Both the position numbers and the translations under genes were made by a program. From NCBI GenBank assembly GCA_945947845.1, contig CAMEZN010000006.1, positions 1-15,498 on the forward strand: a stretch of DNA of 15,498 bases. Reading direction: 5' to 3'. The notes beneath the pieces were generated by a model, which was not told the origin of the DNA, searched no databases, and was given only the letters and a program-made list of their open reading frames with translations. Of the stretch, positions 1,221 through 8,727 are shown in pieces; the stretch's first letter is position 1; every line of letters starts with the position of its first letter. Origin of the DNA: an uncultured Mucispirillum sp. (lineage in GTDB: Bacteria; Chrysiogenota; Deferribacteres; Deferribacterales; Mucispirillaceae).

Positions 1221-1508
1221 ATGGATAACTCATTTAATGAAAATAAGGCTGATGAAATAATTGAAACTAAGCCTAAATGGCTGCAAACTTTAATAATGAT
1301 TTTTATGGTGGTTAATCCCATAGTAGTATTAGCTGCACATATTTTTATTGCAGCCCCATTTATTGTGGTGGAATATTTTATATTACTTTTATTATATGCT
1401 GTTAATCTGGAAAAAATGACAGATGATGTTAAAAAAACATATCGTTTTTATAATATTGAGTTTTTTATATTAATAATATTTATATACTGGTTTCGCCTAA
1501 TGGTATAA
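1221..1508 (+). CDS. Small membrane protein resembling the NhaB N-terminus
   Basis: A 95-residue protein with a good GGAG ribosome-binding site about 8 bases before the ATG. A polar N-terminus (1-17) is followed by three likely membrane segments (about 21-43, 45-62 and 78-94). I recognise no named family for the whole protein. However, residues 18-58 align without gaps to residues 19-59 of the adjacent NhaB, with the shared pattern P-x-W ... I-x-x-F ... NPI-x-x-L ... A ... E and 12 identities in 41 positions (P18, W20, I25, F28, N32, P33, I34, L37, A44, E51, L56, L58). The C-terminal part does not match. It may be a detached paralogue of the first two NhaB helices, perhaps an accessory subunit or regulator; this is inference. 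It lies 23 bases after the hydrolase gene and 28 before nhaB, probably co-transcribed with both. Confidence 0.75.
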
Positions 1509-1536: not shown

Positions 1537-3081
1537 ATGAAAGAAATGGGCTACGGAGCATCATTTGTAAAAAACTTTTTAGGTAATACACCAGCATGGT
1601 ATAAGCTTTCCATACTGGCATTTTTAATTATCAACCCAATACTTTTTTTGTTTGTAAGTAAAACACTTGCAGGCTGGGTATTAATTGCAGAGTTTATATA
1701 CACTCTTGCTCTTGCATTAAAATGTTATCCGCTGCCATCAGGTGGTCTTTTAGCTATTGAAGCACTACTTTTAGGAATGACAAGCCCTTCTACACTTTTA
1801 CATGAGGTGGAAGCAAACTTATCTGTTATACTTTTATTAATGTTTATGGTTGCAGGCATTTATTTTATGAAAGATTTTCTTTTATTTGTATTTTCAAGAC
1901 TGCTTGTAAAAGTAAAATCAAAACTGGCACTTTCTTTAATCTTTTCAATTTTAGGAGCATTTCTTTCTGCCTTTTTAGATGCTTTAACAGTAACAGCAGT
2001 AATAATTGCAGTAGCTTATGGTTTTTATGGTATATATCACAGGTATTCATCAAAATCAGGAGCACAGGGCAGCCTTTCTGATGACAGTAATATTCCAGAA
2101 GAAAGCAGGCAGGATTTGGAGCAGTTTAGAGGTTTTTTAAGAAACCTTATGATGCACGGTGCAGTGGGCACAGCATTAGGTGGTGCTATGACTCAGGTTG
2201 GAGAGCCACAGAATTTAATAATTGCAGCTGCTGCCGGCTGGAATTTTGTTGATTTCTTTATTCATTGTGCTCATGTTTCTATACCTGTATTTATTGCAGG
2301 TCTTTTAACAGTTATATTAGTGGAACTTACTCACTTTTTAGGCTATGGTTATAAGCTGCCTGAAAATGTCCGCAGAATATTAGAAGCAGATGTGGAAGAA
2401 AATGCAGCTAAAATGACAAAAAATACTAAAATGCGCTATATTGTGCAGGCAGTTGTTGGGGTAATATTAATTATTTCTCTTGCACTGCATATTGCAGAAG
2501 TAGGTTTTATAGGTTTAATGGTGATTATCTTATTAACAGCTTTTAATGGTGTAACTGATGAACATCATTTTGGTCATGCTTTTACAGAAGCTTTGCCGTT
2601 TACAGCATTACTTGTTGTATTTTTTGCAATAGTTGGTGTTATACAGGATTTAAAACTTTTTAAACCGATTATAGATATAGTTCTTAATATGCAGGGCAGT
2701 AACCAGCTTGTTGCATTTTTTGCGGCAAACGGTGTGCTTTCAGCTATCAGTGATAATGTGTTTGTGGCAACTGTATATATGAGTGAAGTAAAAACCCACT
2801 TTTTAGGTGCTGGTGCAAGAACAGCAGCTGATATTTCAACAGCTATTGCAGCACTTGATGATGCAACTCGTCAGCAGTATTATGATATAGCAGTAGCAAT
2901 CAATATGGGAACAAATATTCCGTCAGTAGCAACTCCTAACGGACAGGCTGCATTTTTATTTTTATTAACATCATCTCTTGCACCTTTAATAAGGCTTTCA
3001 TATTTTGAAATGATGAAGTTAGCAGCTCCTTATGCAGTAATAATGACAGCAACAGGTTTAGCAGCAACAGCATTTTTATAA
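1537..3081 (+). CDS. nhaB: Na+/H+ antiporter NhaB
   Basis: A 514-residue polytopic inner-membrane protein, the usual length for NhaB (about 510-530). It matches the E. coli protein over its whole length as I recall it: the N-terminal WYKL ... NPI segment, ALKCYPL (60-66), [14 protein letters not shown] (99-112), SAFLDALTV (144-152, with the membrane aspartate D148), [15 protein letters not shown] and [43 protein letters not shown], and the C-terminal [18 protein letters not shown]. NhaB exchanges cytoplasmic Na+ for external protons, aiding sodium and pH balance. A strong GGAGG ribosome-binding site precedes the ATG. The gene ends 8 bases before a strong intrinsic terminator. All 12 glutamines use CAG, in sharp contrast to the Zorya cassette downstream. 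Confidence 0.97.
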
Positions 3082-3088
3082 AATATAT

Positions 3089-3120
3089 AAACTGCCCCTT
3101 TAATATCGGGGCAGTTTTTA
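3089..3120 (+). terminator. Rho-independent terminator after nhaB
   Basis: A perfect 10-bp stem (3089-3098 pairs with 3108-3117; core ACTGCCCC/GGGGCAGT) with a 9-base loop is followed by a short T run. It ends the hydrolase/small protein/nhaB transcript. Its T run runs directly into the GGAG ribosome-binding site (3121-3124) of the next gene. Confidence 0.85.
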
Positions 3121-3129
3121 GGAGTATCA

Positions 3130-3882
3130 ATGGTATTTGGCAGATATAAAAAACCAGAGAATATTAGAAATAAATCAAAAAATGATAATCAAAGCCAAAA
3201 TAAAGCTCAAAATGTTTCTACTAAAAAACTTACTCCCCTTTCATTTAAGTATTCAAAAGATATTGATGACCATTTAAACTATATTTTCCCGGGGCGGAAA
3301 ACTGGGCTGCATATTGACCCAAGTGGAGCAAAATATCAGATAGATATAAATATTATGTATCCCTCAGATGATGAAGATTATTATGTTATCTATACATCAG
3401 GCATGAGCAGTGAAGATATGCTTTTACCAGAAGGGGTTGAAAAAGAATACCCAGAATTTAAACGGGCGGAGCTTTTTATGCTGCTTCCAAAGAACTGGGA
3501 TATAGATAATATGGTATCGCCTATCCCAAAACATGAAACATACTGGCCTATGCAGCTTTTACGAATGATGGCAAGGTATCACTACGAATTTTTTACATGG
3601 ATTGGACCGGGCTATACAATAGAGTATGAATCCTTTGCAAATAATACAAAATTAAGTGCTGCTATGGTGCTTTCTCTTGGTGATGAAATATCTGTTATAA
3701 AAACTAAAAGTAATCAGTTAATATCATTATATTTAGTGCTGCCACTATATAAAGAAGAAGTAAAATATAAAATGCAGCATGGCTATGATGCTTTTGTTGA
3801 CAGGTTTGCAGAATTTTTCCCAGCAAATAACGGAGCTGAATGGATTGTAGATATTAATAGAAAAAATATAGGGTTTGAATAA
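3130..3882 (+). CDS. Suppressor-of-fused (SUFU) domain protein
   Basis: A 250-residue cytoplasmic protein with no signal peptide or membrane segment. Residues 1-35 are a low-complexity N/K/Q-rich leader; the SUFU domain occupies roughly 40-245. Landmarks are IYTSGMSSEDMLLPEG (87-102), RAELFMLLP (112-120) with a following W, YWPMQLLRMMARY (138-150), F-F-T-W-I-G-P-G-Y-T-I (154-164) and LYLVLPLYKEE (200-210), all standard in bacterial SUFU proteins. In bacteria these are described mainly as immunity proteins of polymorphic toxin systems, but many stand alone, and no toxin gene is visible here. GGAG lies 5 bases before the ATG and directly follows the nhaB terminator, so expression depends on readthrough or on a promoter inside nhaB. 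It is the last host-like gene before the Zorya cassette. Confidence 0.82.
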   Translation: MVFGRYKKPENIRNKSKNDNQSQNKAQNVSTKKLTPLSFKYSKDIDDHLNYIFPGRKTGLHIDPSGAKYQIDINIMYPSDDEDYYVIYTSGMSSEDMLLPEGVEKEYPEFKRAELFMLLPKNWDIDNMVSPIPKHETYWPMQLLRMMARYHYEFFTWIGPGYTIEYESFANNTKLSAAMVLSLGDEISVIKTKSNQLISLYLVLPLYKEEVKYKMQHGYDAFVDRFAEFFPANNGAEWIVDINRKNIGFE

Positions 3883-3908
3883 TATAAAACTAATTGTTTT
3901 ATTATTGT

Positions 3909-3925
3909 TTGATTGGAGCTTTTAG
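3909..3925 (+). repeat. Left arm of an imperfect inverted repeat flanking the Zorya cassette
   Basis: TTGATT (3909-3914), two bases, then AGCTTTTAG (3917-3925). The reverse complement of 7469-7487 reads TTGATT, four bases, AGCTTTTAG. The pair brackets zorA, zorB and zorE with their promoter. All 15 aligned bases are identical, with a 2-base difference in the spacer. No transposase is present, and chance matches are possible in such AT-rich DNA. Confidence 0.3.
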
Positions 3926-4028
3926 TATATACTTCAACTCTTTCTACTCAATTTGTTTTATCTTTTTTATTTAATAAGATTATTTTTTGTCATTTTAACA
4001 ACTAGTTTGAAATAAATAAAATAAATTA

Positions 4029-4057
4029 TTGATTTTAATTTATTATATGTTTATAGT
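4029..4057 (+). promoter_or_regulatory. Candidate sigma-70-type promoter for the Zorya operon
   Basis: TTGATT (4029-4034), a 17-base spacer and TATAGT (4052-4057) lie about 40 bases upstream of the zorA start. The spacing is ideal and each hexamer has at least 4 matches to consensus. The surrounding sequence is very AT-rich, which lowers the weight of the match. Confidence 0.42.
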
Positions 4058-4094
4058 TTAGTATTAATTTATATATTATTCTGTTGGAGAATTT

Positions 4095-5579
4095 ATGGTA
4101 AGTTTTCTTGAAGATATTTTGACATATTTTATGCCAAATACTGTCAATAATAGTTTTGTTTATCTCATGCTTGGTATAGCTCTATTAGGTGTATACTTAA
4201 AATTTAAAAAAAGTGAACAATATAATAATATTATAAACTATATACCAAGCCTTTTAACATCACTTGGTATTTTTGGTACATTTGTTGGAATATCTATTGG
4301 TCTTGTTAATTTTGACCCTGCTAATATAGATAATAGTATATCAGAATTATTAGAAGGTATGAAAACAGCTTTTTATTCAAGTTTAGTTGGTATTTTCCTT
4401 TCTATTTGTTTTAAAATATTTCTATCTATTGTAAACTCTAATGTGATAGATACAGATGATAGTGAACAGATATTTAAGCTTATTGAGCGTCAGACAGTAT
4501 CAATAGAAAATATTACAAAGATATTAGGTGGTGATAGTGATACATCAGTATTAACCCAAATAAAGTTATTTAAATCTGATATTAATGACTATATTAATTA
4601 TACAAAAAATTTTGATGATAAGTTTGCACTCACATTATGGGATAAAATGGAACATTTTGCTGATATATTATCAAAATCAGCAACTGAAACAATTATTGAA
4701 GCTTTAAAGAATGTTATACAAGATTTTAATCAAAATCTTACAGAACAGTTTGGAGATAATTTTAAACAATTAAATGAAGCTGTATTTAAATTAGTTGAGT
4801 GGCAGGAACAGTATAAAGAACAAATAGAATTGTGGCAAAAAAATTATGATGACCATAAAATCAGAATAGACACTCTTATACAACAGCAGCAAGAATATAC
4901 AAATTTATTAATTGCAACTTCTCAAATGATAGAAAAAGCTAGGGCATCATTAGATGATATAGCAGAAACTACTAATTCTATATCATTTAATATGAAAGAT
5001 TTAGTTGAAATCATGAATGTGCATGAAAAACAATTAAACGATTTAGATATGCATATTAAAGCATTTGAAGAAGTAAAAGAAAAGGCAAGTAAGGCTTTTC
5101 CAGAAATAAAAGAAAATGTTAATGAAATAATAAATAATATAAAGAACTCCGTAGATACTACCACAATTCATTATAATAATTTAGTGTTAGAAACCCAAAA
5201 AATTCAAGAAACAGTTTCAAATATAATAGCAAATTTTATAAAGGAAGAAAGCGAACAGATTACAACAATGTTTACAACCTTGGATAAAAAAATCCAAGAA
5301 AATATTGTTAATATCAACAAAATAATAGAAAATAACTTGAATGATATGCTTATAAGTCAAAATAAAGGTATAGATGTATTATTTAGTAAAATAGATACTG
5401 CATTACAAGAACAAGTTTCAAAAACAACAAGTAATATCGATAAACAGGTTAAAATTATTGATGAATCAATGGAACAAGAATTAAAACGAGGACTTGAAGC
5501 AATAGGTAAAGCATTAGCACAAATTTCTGCAAAAGTTGTTGAAGAATATAACAAAATGTATGAAGCTAATAATAATTAG
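4095..5579 (+). CDS. zorA: ZorA: MotA-like stator protein of a Zorya defence system
   Basis: A 494-residue inner-membrane protein. Three membrane segments can be seen at about 21-36, 50-71 and 90-113. The second contains the MotA/ExbB-superfamily pattern SLGIFGTFVGISIGL (56-70) and the third GMKTAFYSSLVGIFLS (88-103); both are characteristic of ZorA. Residues from about 120 to the end form a long, charged, largely helical tail with many heptad-like stretches, the cytoplasmic tail that sets ZorA apart from flagellar MotA. In Zorya, a ZorA pentamer surrounds a ZorB dimer to form a proton-driven motor thought to signal phage entry to a cytoplasmic nuclease. GGAG (4086-4089) precedes the ATG by 5 bases. 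The stop is 7 bases before zorB. Glutamine is 19 CAA to 9 CAG. No flagellar or TonB genes are nearby, which argues against MotA or ExbB. Confidence 0.87.
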   Translation: MVSFLEDILTYFMPNTVNNSFVYLMLGIALLGVYLKFKKSEQYNNIINYIPSLLTSLGIFGTFVGISIGLVNFDPANIDNSISELLEGMKTAFYSSLVGIFLSICFKIFLSIVNSNVIDTDDSEQIFKLIERQTVSIENITKILGGDSDTSVLTQIKLFKSDINDYINYTKNFDDKFALTLWDKMEHFADILSKSATETIIEALKNVIQDFNQNLTEQFGDNFKQLNEAVFKLVEWQEQYKEQIELWQKNYDDHKIRIDTLIQQQQEYTNLLIATSQMIEKARASLDDIAETTNSISFNMKDLVEIMNVHEKQLNDLDMHIKAFEEVKEKASKAFPEIKENVNEIINNIKNSVDTTTIHYNNLVLETQKIQETVSNIIANFIKEESEQITTMFTTLDKKIQENIVNINKIIENNLNDMLISQNKGIDVLFSKIDTALQEQVSKTTSNIDKQVKIIDESMEQELKRGLEAIGKALAQISAKVVEEYNKMYEANNN

Positions 5580-5586
5580 GTAAGCA

Positions 5587-6315
5587 ATGAAAAGTTTATT
5601 TAATCTAAAAAAATCAAATCAAGATGGTGGATATTGGCTAACTATTTCAGATTTAATGTCTGGATTAATGATTGTTTTTTTATTTATTTCAATATCATTT
5701 ATGAGATATACCCAGATAGAAAAAGATAAGGTAGCGATTGAAAGAGATAAAATTAAAAATATTGCTGTTGCATATCAAGAAAATCAAGTAGAAATATACA
5801 ATGCTTTAAATGAAGAATTTATAAATGACTTACCAAAATGGAATGCATCGATTGATAAACATACACTATCATTTCAATTTAATGCACCAGAAGTTCTATT
5901 TGATGTTGGACAAAGTAATATGAATAAAATATTCAAAAATATCTTGGAAGATTTTATACCTAGATATTTGGAAATACTTTCAAATTATAAAAGTAGTATA
6001 GATGAAATAAGAATTGAGGGTCATACTTCTTCTGAATGGCGATATAAAACATCAGAAGATAAAGCATATTTTTATAATATGCAACTATCACAAGAAAGAA
6101 CTAGAAGTGTATTAGAATATGCATATCATATTAAAAATATAAATGATGAACAAAGACAATGGATTAAATAAAAATTTGCAGCAGTTGGATTTTCATCATC
6201 TAAAATTATCAAAGATATAAGAGGTAATGAAGATAAAAAACGTTCTAGGAGAGTAACATTTAGAGTTATAACAAATGCAGATATACAAATTAAAAAAATT
6301 ATCGAGAGCATGTAA
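5587..6315 (+). pseudogene. zorB: ZorB: MotB/OmpA-like Zorya protein interrupted by an in-frame TAA
   Basis: The reading frame runs from ATG 5587 to TAA 6313-6315 (242 sense codons) but contains one internal TAA at 6169-6171, so 194 residues are translated. The N-terminus has one membrane helix (about 20-38) with the MotB-type aspartate D22 in ISDLMSGLMIVFLF. The periplasmic part has APEVLFDVGQS (100-110), EGHTSSE (144-150) and the OmpA-type N-x-x-L-S-x-x-R (164-171), ending at QWIK. In the same frame after the stop come KFAAVGFSSSKII and KKRSRRVTFRV, the expected closing strands of the OmpA domain, including the arginine-rich segment that helps bind diaminopimelate. The lost 47 residues should cripple peptidoglycan anchoring. 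No ATG, GTG or TTG codon lies between the stop and the missing domain part, so a separate restart is unlikely. An AGG 6 bases upstream is a weak ribosome-binding site. Confidence 0.86.
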
Positions 6316-6317
6316 TT

Positions 6318-7457
6318 ATGAAATTAAATTTTGATTTATCTGCATTAAAGCAAATTGTTAAATCAATTGGAGCAGATAAAATAAATATAGACTTTTTGAT
6401 TGATTTTAACTTAGCACCAATAGATGATATAGATATAGAATTAGAAGCTGGTAAAGAAATATTTGTAAATCAAATACAAGATGTAAATGGACTTTTGTCG
6501 CATGCTGGAAGACAAGTTATATTATATATTAAAGACCATACATTTGAAAATAACCCTACACTTTCAAGTTTACAAAAAGATGGAAGTAAGGGTAGAAAAT
6601 TTCACATAACAGATTGTAAAACATTAAAAAATATGAGAACTAATCAAAGATTTGACAGATATGTTGTTACAACTAATACAACAGGATTTTTTAAAATATC
6701 AGCTAGAAATAGTTATGGAATGATAGAAGAAGGAGATGTCAAATTAGATGTTTGTCAAAACTGTTTAGAACAATTAAATTATAACGATTACAAATTTTTA
6801 AGTCAAGATAATAGAAAAAATGAAGTAAAAACTTTTAATATACTTAATTTTTTTGAGCAATATAGCTCATTTATTAGGTATTTACCTTCAGGAATAGCAA
6901 AAGTTAAAGATGTAACATATACAGATGATTGGGAAGAAATTTCTAGTGAATACAGAGCTAGTGTTCATTATAAATGTGAAGAATGTGGAGTAGATTTAAG
7001 TAATAATAGTCAAACAAGGAAGTTATTACATGTTCATCATATCAATGGAGTTAAAGGTGATAATAGATATGATAATTTAAAGGCTTTATGCTTTGACTGT
7101 CATAAAAAACAACCAAATCATAGTCATATGCTTTGTAAAAAAGATTATATTATTAAGATAAATGAATTACGACTAAAACAAGGAATAATTTCTGATATAA
7201 TATCATGGAATGATGTTTATAAATACAGTGATACAGCTTTATATGGTGTAATTAGAATGTTAGAGCATGAAAAAATTCAAATCCCAAGATTACATCAATA
7301 TATAGATAATAATAAAGTTGAATTATTATGGGTAAGATATAGAATAGGTATATCCCTTGAGCCAAAAACTATCAAAATTAATGATTATGTAATCTATTCA
7401 CATAAAGATATAATTGAAAATTATAATAAGTTTATAACTCATTTTAAAAATTGGTAG
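6318..7457 (+). CDS. zorE: ZorE: HNH endonuclease of a type II Zorya system
   Basis: A 379-residue soluble protein whose ATG lies 2 bases after the end of the zorB frame. The HNH core is at 218-265: C220-E-E-C223, then H-V-H-H-I-N-G (238-244, catalytic H240/H241), Y-D-N-L (251-254, N253) and C258-F-D-C261-H262, giving a two-CxxC zinc ribbon with the H-N-H triad complete. The N-terminal half has CKTLKNMR (100-107), RYVVTTNTTG (114-123) and C146-Q-N-C149-L; C100, C146 and C149 may form a second zinc site. The C-terminal region (about 290-379) has no motif I know. Type II Zorya pairs ZorA/ZorB with a single HNH protein, ZorE, which cuts or nicks phage DNA; the order here fits. All 15 glutamines use CAA. 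The zorB stop lies about 147 bases upstream and may reduce coupled translation. Confidence 0.85.
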   Translation: MKLNFDLSALKQIVKSIGADKINIDFLIDFNLAPIDDIDIELEAGKEIFVNQIQDVNGLLSHAGRQVILYIKDHTFENNPTLSSLQKDGSKGRKFHITDCKTLKNMRTNQRFDRYVVTTNTTGFFKISARNSYGMIEEGDVKLDVCQNCLEQLNYNDYKFLSQDNRKNEVKTFNILNFFEQYSSFIRYLPSGIAKVKDVTYTDDWEEISSEYRASVHYKCEECGVDLSNNSQTRKLLHVHHINGVKGDNRYDNLKALCFDCHKKQPNHSHMLCKKDYIIKINELRLKQGIISDIISWNDVYKYSDTALYGVIRMLEHEKIQIPRLHQYIDNNKVELLWVRYRIGISLEPKTIKINDYVIYSHKDIIENYNKFITHFKNW

Positions 7458-7468
7458 TTTATTATTTT

Positions 7469-7487
7469 CTAAAAGCTATTTAATCAA
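7469..7487 (-). repeat. Right arm of the imperfect inverted repeat flanking the Zorya cassette
   Basis: CTAAAAGCT (7469-7477), four bases, AATCAA (7482-7487) is the inverted counterpart of 3909-3925. It lies 11 bases after the zorE stop and upstream of the tgt promoter. Confidence 0.3.
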
Positions 7488-7553
7488 TAATTATAAAGTA
7501 TAAATTCAATATTTTTCAAAAAATATGCAAAAATGATGATTTTTCTCTTTATA

Positions 7554-7582
7554 TTTTCATAAAAATTATTTATAAGTATAAT
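7554..7582 (+). promoter_or_regulatory. Promoter of the tgt-yajC-secDF operon
   Basis: TTTTCA (7554-7559), a 17-base spacer and a perfect TATAAT (7577-7582) lie upstream of tgt. Transcription would begin near 7589, leaving a leader of about 26 bases that contains the GGAG at 7598-7601. Its position shows that tgt need not depend on the Zorya transcript. Confidence 0.6.
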
Positions 7583-7614
7583 TTCATGGACTATTATGGA
7601 GTGAAAAATTTATA

Positions 7615-8727
7615 ATGTTTTCTTTTGATTTAGAGTATATAGATAGTGAAACAAGTGCAAGGGCAGGCAGAATTAAAACTCCCCATGGGGAGATAGAAAC
7701 CCCTATATTTATGCCTGTGGGCACAGTAGGCTCTGTAAAGGCATTATCACCTGATGATTTAAATAATGCAGGTGCTCAGATAATTCTGGGTAATACTTAT
7801 CATTTATATCTTCGTCCCGGAACAGAAGTATTAAAACATTTTGGCGGGCTTGCTGCCTTTTCATCATGGAATAAACCAACATTAACAGACAGCGGCGGTT
7901 TTCAAGTATTTTCTCTTGCAGAGCTTAATAAAATAACAGAAGACGGGGTTAGTTTTAAATCACATCTTGACGGCTCATCACTATATCTTAATCCTGAAAA
8001 ATCAATTGAAATACAAGAAGCAATAGGCAGTGATATAATAATGTCATTTGATGAATGTATACCATATCCTGCAACTCATGAATATGTAAAAAATTCAGTA
8101 GATAGAACAGCCAGATGGGCAGAACGAGGTAAGGCTGCAAAAAAAAGAGATGACCAGGCATTATTTGGTATAGTGCAGGGCGGCATATACGAAGATATGC
8201 GCAGGCGTTCTGCTGAACAGCTTACATCAATAGGCTTTGATGGATATTCAATCGGTGGTCTTAGTGTAGGTGAAGAAATATCTCAAATGTATGAAGTATG
8301 CGGATATACTGCATCATTTCTGCCTAAGGATAAGCCCCGCTATCTAATGGGAGTAGGCACACCAGAAGATATACTCACATGTATAGGTTTAGGGGTTGAT
8401 ATGTTTGACTGTGTAATGCCTACACGAAATGCAAGAAACGGAACACTTTTCACAAGCAGTGGTAAATTTTCAATAAAACGAGCTGATTTAGCTTTCAGTG
8501 ATGATAAAGTAGATGAAAACTGCAACTGCTATACATGCCGCAACTTTTCCCGTGGTTATTTAAGACATTTATATAAGGCTGGAGAAATCCTTGCATTAAG
8601 ATTAAACAGCATACATAATATTTCTTTTTATCTTTCTATTGTAAAAAACAGCAGAAATGCTATAAAAGAAGGTAAATTTAAATCATTTCAGCAGGAAATG
8701 CTGTATAGATTAAAAAATAATAATTAA
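7615..8727 (+). CDS. tgt: Queuine tRNA-guanine transglycosylase
   Basis: A 370-residue cytoplasmic enzyme of normal family length. It replaces guanine-34 in tRNAs with GUN anticodons by preQ1, a step in queuosine synthesis. Visible landmarks are LGNTYHLYLRPG (58-69), LTDSGGFQVFSL (90-101, with D92), SFDECIP (144-150), GIVQGG (185-190), YSIGGLSVGE (211-220) and MFDCVMPTRNARNG (263-276, nucleophile D265). The zinc site is C303-x-C305-x2-C308 with H334, with the same spacing as the Zymomonas enzyme. GGAG lies 13 bases before the ATG, a rather long gap, but the residues following the ATG match the family start and no better start is in frame. It is the first gene of an operon with yajC (28-base gap), secD and secF, a common bacterial arrangement. 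Confidence 0.97.
   Translation: MFSFDLEYIDSETSARAGRIKTPHGEIETPIFMPVGTVGSVKALSPDDLNNAGAQIILGNTYHLYLRPGTEVLKHFGGLAAFSSWNKPTLTDSGGFQVFSLAELNKITEDGVSFKSHLDGSSLYLNPEKSIEIQEAIGSDIIMSFDECIPYPATHEYVKNSVDRTARWAERGKAAKKRDDQALFGIVQGGIYEDMRRRSAEQLTSIGFDGYSIGGLSVGEEISQMYEVCGYTASFLPKDKPRYLMGVGTPEDILTCIGLGVDMFDCVMPTRNARNGTLFTSSGKFSIKRADLAFSDDKVDENCNCYTCRNFSRGYLRHLYKAGEILALRLNSIHNISFYLSIVKNSRNAIKEGKFKSFQQEMLYRLKNNN

What the first reader, a model, noticed from the sequence alone, without database searches (positions are those of the whole stretch)
6160..6315. zorB is broken by a single in-frame TAA inside the OmpA domain
The frame stays open on both sides of the TAA at 6169-6171, and the 47 codons after it encode exactly the expected end of the domain (A-V-G-F-S ... 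R-S-R-R-V-T-F-R-V). The gene therefore looks recently inactivated by one base change rather than decayed. zorA and zorE remain intact. Either the strain has lost the defence, or the short ZorB still works, or the stop is read through. It may reflect a cost of carrying an active Zorya motor, or phase-like strain variation.
Basis: seen in the sequence. Interest (0 to 1): 0.72.

Follow-up and report, generated by a model that had tools for sequence, protein, structure and literature searches.

The report
Recently broken Zorya phage-defence gene zorB
A bacterial anti-virus motor (a type II Zorya system) carries one premature stop in its cell-wall-anchor gene, which most likely switches the defence off; it looks like an ordinary, recent gene loss, and a related species carries a more decayed wreck of the same system.

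Summary
zorB (5587-6315) holds one in-frame TAA at 6169-6171; the next 47 codons match the end of the type II ZorB profile. None of 86 aligned intact relatives ends there; each runs 45-59 residues further (80 of them are the best-scoring 80 of 492, which favours intact copies). The lost piece holds two of four positions whose mutation abolished cell-wall binding and defence in E. coli ZorB (PMC11890865) and, in a model of an intact relative, two of three long sheet strands. The short protein is probably dead. zorA and zorE are uninterrupted, so the lesion is young: under about 0.4-0.8% neutral divergence. The island lies between a SUFU-domain gene and tgt; 8 of 9 same-genus genomes lack it there. 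The ninth, G002, has a zorB-zorE wreck beside tgt with different lesions, yet dN/dS over the shared zorB stretch is 0.11 (84 codons): selected for, then apparently lost in two lineages. Sequencing or assembly error cannot be excluded without reads. Recoding, restart and repeat-driven phase variation found no support. Pseudogenisation of a known system; low novelty.

The parts
4095..5579 (+). zorA (type II), 494 aa, uninterrupted
   Evidence: PADLOC PDLC00640 E 1.7e-121; PF01618 MotA_ExbB; no stop inside
5587..6171 (+). zorB as encoded: 194 aa, transmembrane part and first part of the peptidoglycan-binding (OmpA-like) domain, ends at the premature TAA
   Evidence: PDLC00641 positions 8-189; PF00691 OmpA positions 1-71 of 98
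6169..6171 (+). premature in-frame TAA
   Evidence: a residue, never a stop, at this column in 86 of 86 aligned relatives
6172..6315 (+). orphaned last 47 codons of zorB plus its normal TAA; no in-frame ATG/GTG/TTG except the last codon
   Evidence: PDLC00641 positions 191-236
6318..7457 (+). zorE (HNH nickase family), 379 aa, uninterrupted
   Evidence: PDLC00645 E 1.3e-118; PF01844 HNH; histidine and cysteine motifs aligned with E. coli and Vibrio ZorE
3889..7510 (.). approximate extent of the Zorya island between the SUFU-domain gene and tgt (edges blurred by about 20 bp); G+C 0.244 against 0.316 in the rest of the window
   Evidence: DNA matches to the eight empty sites end at 3867-3889 and resume at 7493-7519; composition over 3890-7493
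3130..3882 (+). SUFU-domain gene, left flank of the island
   Evidence: PF05076
7615..8727 (+). tgt, right flank of the island (gene name recalled)
   Evidence: found in 15 of 15 family genomes

Best explanation
This is a type II Zorya operon (zorA-zorB-zorE) recently inactivated by a nonsense change in zorB. Shown: the stop in the assembly, the otherwise uninterrupted operon, the presence of the missing segment in all 86 aligned relatives, and a separately decayed remnant beside tgt in a sister species. Inferred: the 194-aa ZorB has its membrane helix and ion-channel aspartate (D22) but cannot complete its cell-wall-binding domain (two sheet strands and the positions R221 and K236 are gone), so ZorAB cannot sense phage entry through peptidoglycan and cannot recruit ZorE; ZorE without ZorAB is reported not to protect. 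The stop also moves the end of zorB translation from 2 to 146 bases before zorE, which may lower zorE translation. The island seems to be eroding in this genus.
For: Profile match continuous across the stop; 86 of 86 aligned relatives continue 45-59 residues, 0 of 80 fetched relatives have a stop inside; E. coli ZorB D24, H141, S143, R215, R230 map to window D22, H146, S148 (before the stop) and R221, K236 (after it; the window has K where E. coli has R), and H141, S143, R215 and R230 mutants lose peptidoglycan binding and defence, and the peptidoglycan-binding domain is required for defence (PMC11890865, abstract, passages and sections 6 part 1, 7, 8); the model of an intact relative (L108) puts strands 188-194 and 212-220 and helix 221-232 after the stop position (about residue 186), and the truncated window model forms no counterpart of long strand 129-138; no further lesion in 1114 codons bounds the age to about 0.4-0.8% divergence; wreck at the same site in G002 with dN/dS 0.109, bootstrap 0.045-0.232 over 84 codons.
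Against: No reads, so a consensus error or a minority allele is possible. Loss of function is inferred from homologues, not assayed. The truncated protein's model is as confident overall as the intact relative's (mean pLDDT 86.4 against 84.8, pTM 0.67 against 0.74), so the models do not by themselves show instability. Only 51 of 86 relatives carry at this column a residue with a codon one substitution from TAA, so a one-step origin is plausible, not shown.
Confidence: 0.78

Rival explanations
1. Sequencing, assembly or strain-mixture error: the living strain, or most of its population, has a sense codon here and an intact Zorya.
For: The source is a fragmented, 75%-complete assembly; a single codon differs; no reads are available.
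Against: The four flanking window genes compared with sister genomes (MBL-fold, NhaB, SUFU, Tgt) align over their full length or all but one residue, so the local error rate is not high; a random substitution in these frames makes a stop only about 6% of the time; a sister species also shows a broken copy.
Confidence: 0.15
2. The 194-aa ZorB is functional or has a new role, for instance as an un-anchored stator.
For: The membrane part, the ion aspartate D22 and the positions H146 and S148 are kept; zorA and zorE show no lesion.
Against: All 86 aligned relatives keep the C-terminal segment, with 16 of its 47 positions at least 90% conserved; it holds positions needed for peptidoglycan binding and defence in E. 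coli (PMC11890865); uninterrupted zorA and zorE are equally expected of a young lesion.
Confidence: 0.04
3. The stop is read through or bypassed, giving some full-length ZorB.
For: The frame after the stop is open and conserved.
Against: TAA ends 7 of 12 other listed window genes; 16 tRNAs found in the assembly, none with a TAA-reading anticodon, though the genome is incomplete; no ATG/GTG/TTG restart codon after the stop except the last codon (only ATT/ATC/ATA); the frame does not change, so slippage would not help; a conserved tail is equally expected of a young lesion.
Confidence: 0.03

Closest known systems
Type II Zorya (zorA2-zorB2-zorE), e.g. the E. coli ATCC 8739 system and the S. kujiense ZorAB structure 8VVI
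   Same: Same three genes in the same order; ZorB 55% identical to the E. coli plasmid copy L041; solved relative 8VVI matches query residues 7-240
   Different: zorB carries a premature stop; the operon sits in a SUFU-tgt intergenic site of an AT-rich genome
Decayed Zorya remnant in same-genus genome G002
   Same: Same right flank (tgt), homologous zorB and zorE DNA (about 83% identical over the 274-base zorB piece)
   Different: Broken by an in-frame TAA at a different codon, a deletion of about 1.1 kb fusing zorB to the end of zorE, and frame changes; its contig ends inside zorB, and no zorA was found
V. coralliilyticus pOCN014 zorB (L040)
   Same: zorB disrupted (two frames) while zorA and zorE each match in one frame; a sister plasmid (L039) is intact
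   Different: Frame disruption near codon 94-100, not an in-frame stop; may itself be a sequencing error

Membership tests
Type II Zorya system | ZorA of type II next to ZorB | tested here: met
   PDLC00640 ZorA2 E 1.7e-121, ahead of the type I models
Type II Zorya system | ZorB with transmembrane aspartate and peptidoglycan-binding domain, type II profile | tested here: met
   PDLC00641 ZorB2 over both pieces; D22 aligned with E. coli D24. Met by the DNA as a whole, not by the 194-aa product
Type II Zorya system | Uninterrupted full-length zorB reading frame | tested here: not met
   TAA at 6169-6171. The locus is a type II Zorya by descent; it is not a complete one as assembled
Type II Zorya system | ZorE HNH effector in the operon | tested here: met
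   PDLC00645 E 1.3e-118; HNH motif and paired cysteines conserved
Type II Zorya system | Protection against phage | not testable with these tools
   No assay
Pseudogene (recent nonsense allele) | Intact homologues in relatives, lesion in this copy, conserved remainder | tested here: met
Pseudogene (recent nonsense allele) | Lesion confirmed in reads or other strains of the species | not testable with these tools
   No reads or same-species genomes on hand; the 9 other genomes of the genus that were searched hold no intact zorB
Stop-codon recoding or reassignment | Suppressor tRNA, or TAA not used as terminator elsewhere | tested here: inconclusive
   TAA ends 7 of 12 other listed genes; none of 16 tRNAs reads TAA, but the genome is incomplete

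The most novel reading that the evidence does not exclude
The nonsense allele is a maintained polymorphism: populations keep a silenced but whole Zorya operon, with occasional mutation to and from the full-length zorB, trading protection against the cost of a host-DNA-nicking defence; separate zorB breakage in two species of the genus would be a sign of this.
Probability: 0.05. Interest if true: 0.5.

Novelty: new member of a known kind. Interest (0 to 1): 0.2.

Why it matters
It is a natural, apparently young loss of one Zorya motor component with the rest of the operon whole, in a genus where another species carries the same system further decayed after a period of purifying selection. It offers a natural test of whether the cell-wall-binding part of ZorB is where losses begin, and a caution that a profile search can call this locus a complete Zorya. 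Otherwise ordinary.

Tried and rejected
Rejected: functional ZorBs of the group end here (0 of 86). Rejected: an old, decayed gene (no further lesion in 1114 codons). No support found for: a split gene with restart (no ATG/GTG/TTG between the stop and the last codon); a described RNA element (no Rfam match at gathering score in the window); repeat-driven phase variation (the frame is the same on both sides; I ran no repeat search). Promoter- and terminator-like scans over 3850-7650 were no better than shuffles (38 against a mean of 37.0; 1 against 0.5) and are not used. A second, complementing zorB in the assembly was looked for: the only other ZorB2-profile match is a motB-like gene beside a motA-like gene at G000:C165 (the names rest on my reading of the sequences). 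A tree of tgt alone did not resolve which species is closest to the window's, so the number of gains and losses of the island is open. The start of the island in G002 could not be read: 222 bases after its SUFU gene show no zorA, then the contig ends. Searches with the ZorB2 profile of 39 genomes of one phylum and 50 of the window's own gave weak matches in most genomes but only 5 strong ones (E under 1e-30): two without a stop in the first (G072, G056) and, in the second, G031 without a stop, the window's and G002's with one; too few for a rate of breakage. E. coli counts (zorB2 at least 80% covered in 524 of 525 matched genomes, zorA2 in 522 of 526, zorE in 533 of 581) do not detect point stops. 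Print: Zorya with pseudogene gave 10 papers, of which I opened one for passages (PMC9608740); Zorya/ZorB/premature stop gave 118 papers holding at least two of the terms, 15 listed; none of the 25 rows listed by these two calls presents such a case in its title or the start of its abstract. PMC12409362 (listed) was seen in passages. Mucispirillum with Zorya gave none.

Full report
WHAT IS THERE. The window is contig C6 of a 1.93-Mb, 336-contig assembly rated 75% complete. It holds, on the + strand, an MBL-fold gene, a short NhaB-like ORF, NhaB, a SUFU-domain gene, zorA (4095-5579), zorB (from 5587), zorE (6318-7457), then tgt, yajC, secD and secF (the last four named by me from their sequence, recalled). 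zorB is interrupted by an in-frame TAA at 6169-6171; 47 codons follow before the normal TAA at 6313-6315, two bases before the zorE start. The two pieces match positions 8-189 and 191-236 of the 238-position ZorB2 profile, and a profile search of the genome reports one TAA inside a continuous match.

DO OTHER ZorB PROTEINS END THERE? Not in what I examined. Selection by score favours intact copies, so this is not a rate of breakage. Outside this set, the Vibrio coralliilyticus pOCN014 copy is broken by a frame change while its zorA and zorE match in one frame each, and same-genus genome G002 is broken (below).

WHAT IS LOST. Mariano et al. 2025 (PMC11890865; I saw the abstract, passages, section 6 part 1 of 2, and sections 7 and 8) report that in E. 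[quoted passage not shown] In the alignment with an E. coli plasmid copy these positions map to window H146 and S148 before the stop and R221 and K236 after it; the ion aspartate maps to D22. A model of an intact relative, L108 (mean pLDDT 84.8), has long strands at 129-138, 188-194 and 212-220 and a final helix at 221-232; its best solved match is the type II ZorB of 8VVI. The stop falls at about residue 186 of that protein (offset), so two of three long strands and the last helix are lost. The model of the window's 194-aa protein has similar overall confidence (mean pLDDT 86.4, pTM 0.67 against 0.74) but shows no strand for the remaining one. I infer that the domain cannot form properly. No protein was tested.

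HOW OLD IS IT? zorA, zorE and the rest of zorB show no other stop or frame break. In these 1114 codons about 5.8% of substitutions would make a stop; with indels assumed at 5-15% of substitutions, a further lesion would be expected with 95% probability by 0.4-0.8% divergence. Synonymous distances from the window to the five closest species are 0.62-0.81 in tgt (five compared), 0.35-0.94 in SUFU (four compared) and 0.46-0.53 in NhaB (three compared). The lesion is therefore young, or it is an error in the data.

THE SITE AND THE SISTERS. All 15 family genomes searched have tgt. For 12 of the 14 other than the window's I took the upstream DNA. In 8 of 9 same-genus genomes SUFU and tgt lie next to each other, 119-536 bases apart, without Zorya; the 536-base gap, in G008, holds another short ORF. 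In G002 a zorB stretch (window residues 70 to about 154) with its own in-frame TAA at a different codon runs into the last part of zorE after loss of about 1.1 kb, with frame changes, next to tgt. Its contig ends inside zorB; its SUFU gene is on another contig that ends 222 bases later without zorA, and no zorA was found in that 86%-complete genome. The shared zorB stretch has dN 0.081, dS 0.743, ratio 0.109 (bootstrap 0.045-0.232, 84 codons), with dS near that of tgt (0.617). The pooled zorE remnant is less clean: dN 0.299, dS 1.145, ratio 0.26 over 96 codons, as a decayed piece with uncertain alignment would be. I read this as an island about as old as the species split, kept under purifying selection for most of the time in both lineages and broken later and separately. 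The tree of tgt does not resolve the order of the six close species, so ancestral gain with several clean losses, or repeated gain at one site, both remain possible.

OTHER EXPLANATIONS. Recoding: TAA ends 7 of 12 other listed genes in the window, and none of 16 tRNAs found reads TAA, but the assembly is incomplete. Restart: there is no ATG, GTG or TTG between the stop and the final codon. Complementation: the only other ZorB-profile match in the assembly is a motB-like gene next to a motA-like gene. Error: not excludable; the flanking genes compared are full-length.

VERDICT. A type II Zorya whose zorB has most likely been inactivated recently by one nonsense codon. It is a new example of a known kind of event in a known system, with one useful addition: the same system lies in ruins in a sister species after a period under selection.

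Noticed in passing
L040 (V. coralliilyticus pOCN014) 3001-3703: zorB split over two frames near codon 94-100 while zorA and zorE each match in one frame; a sister plasmid (L039) is intact. Could be real or a sequencing error.
   Followed up: partly
L033 (G008), SUFU-tgt gap of 536 bases: A short ORF that looks to me like a small membrane protein sits where the Zorya island lies in the window, so the SUFU-tgt gap may be a repeated insertion site.
   Followed up: no
window 3889-7510: The island is poorer in G+C (0.244) than the rest of the window (0.316); it abuts the SUFU gene and tgt, and the window has no RNA-family match that could mark an integration site.
   Followed up: partly
window 1221-1508: A 95-aa ORF resembling the N-terminal part of NhaB (22.8 bits, below Pfam's cut-off of 27) lies just before the full nhaB gene; perhaps a partial duplicate.
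   Followed up: no
E. coli genomes: 48 of 581 E. coli genomes with a zorE match hold no place with 80% of it, against 1 of 525 for zorB and 4 of 526 for zorA: ends of zorE may outlive the rest of the operon.
   Followed up: no
window 3130-3882: A SUFU-domain protein, a family I recall mainly from animal signalling, lies next to tgt in 8 of 9 same-genus genomes (and on a separate contig in the ninth).
   Followed up: no
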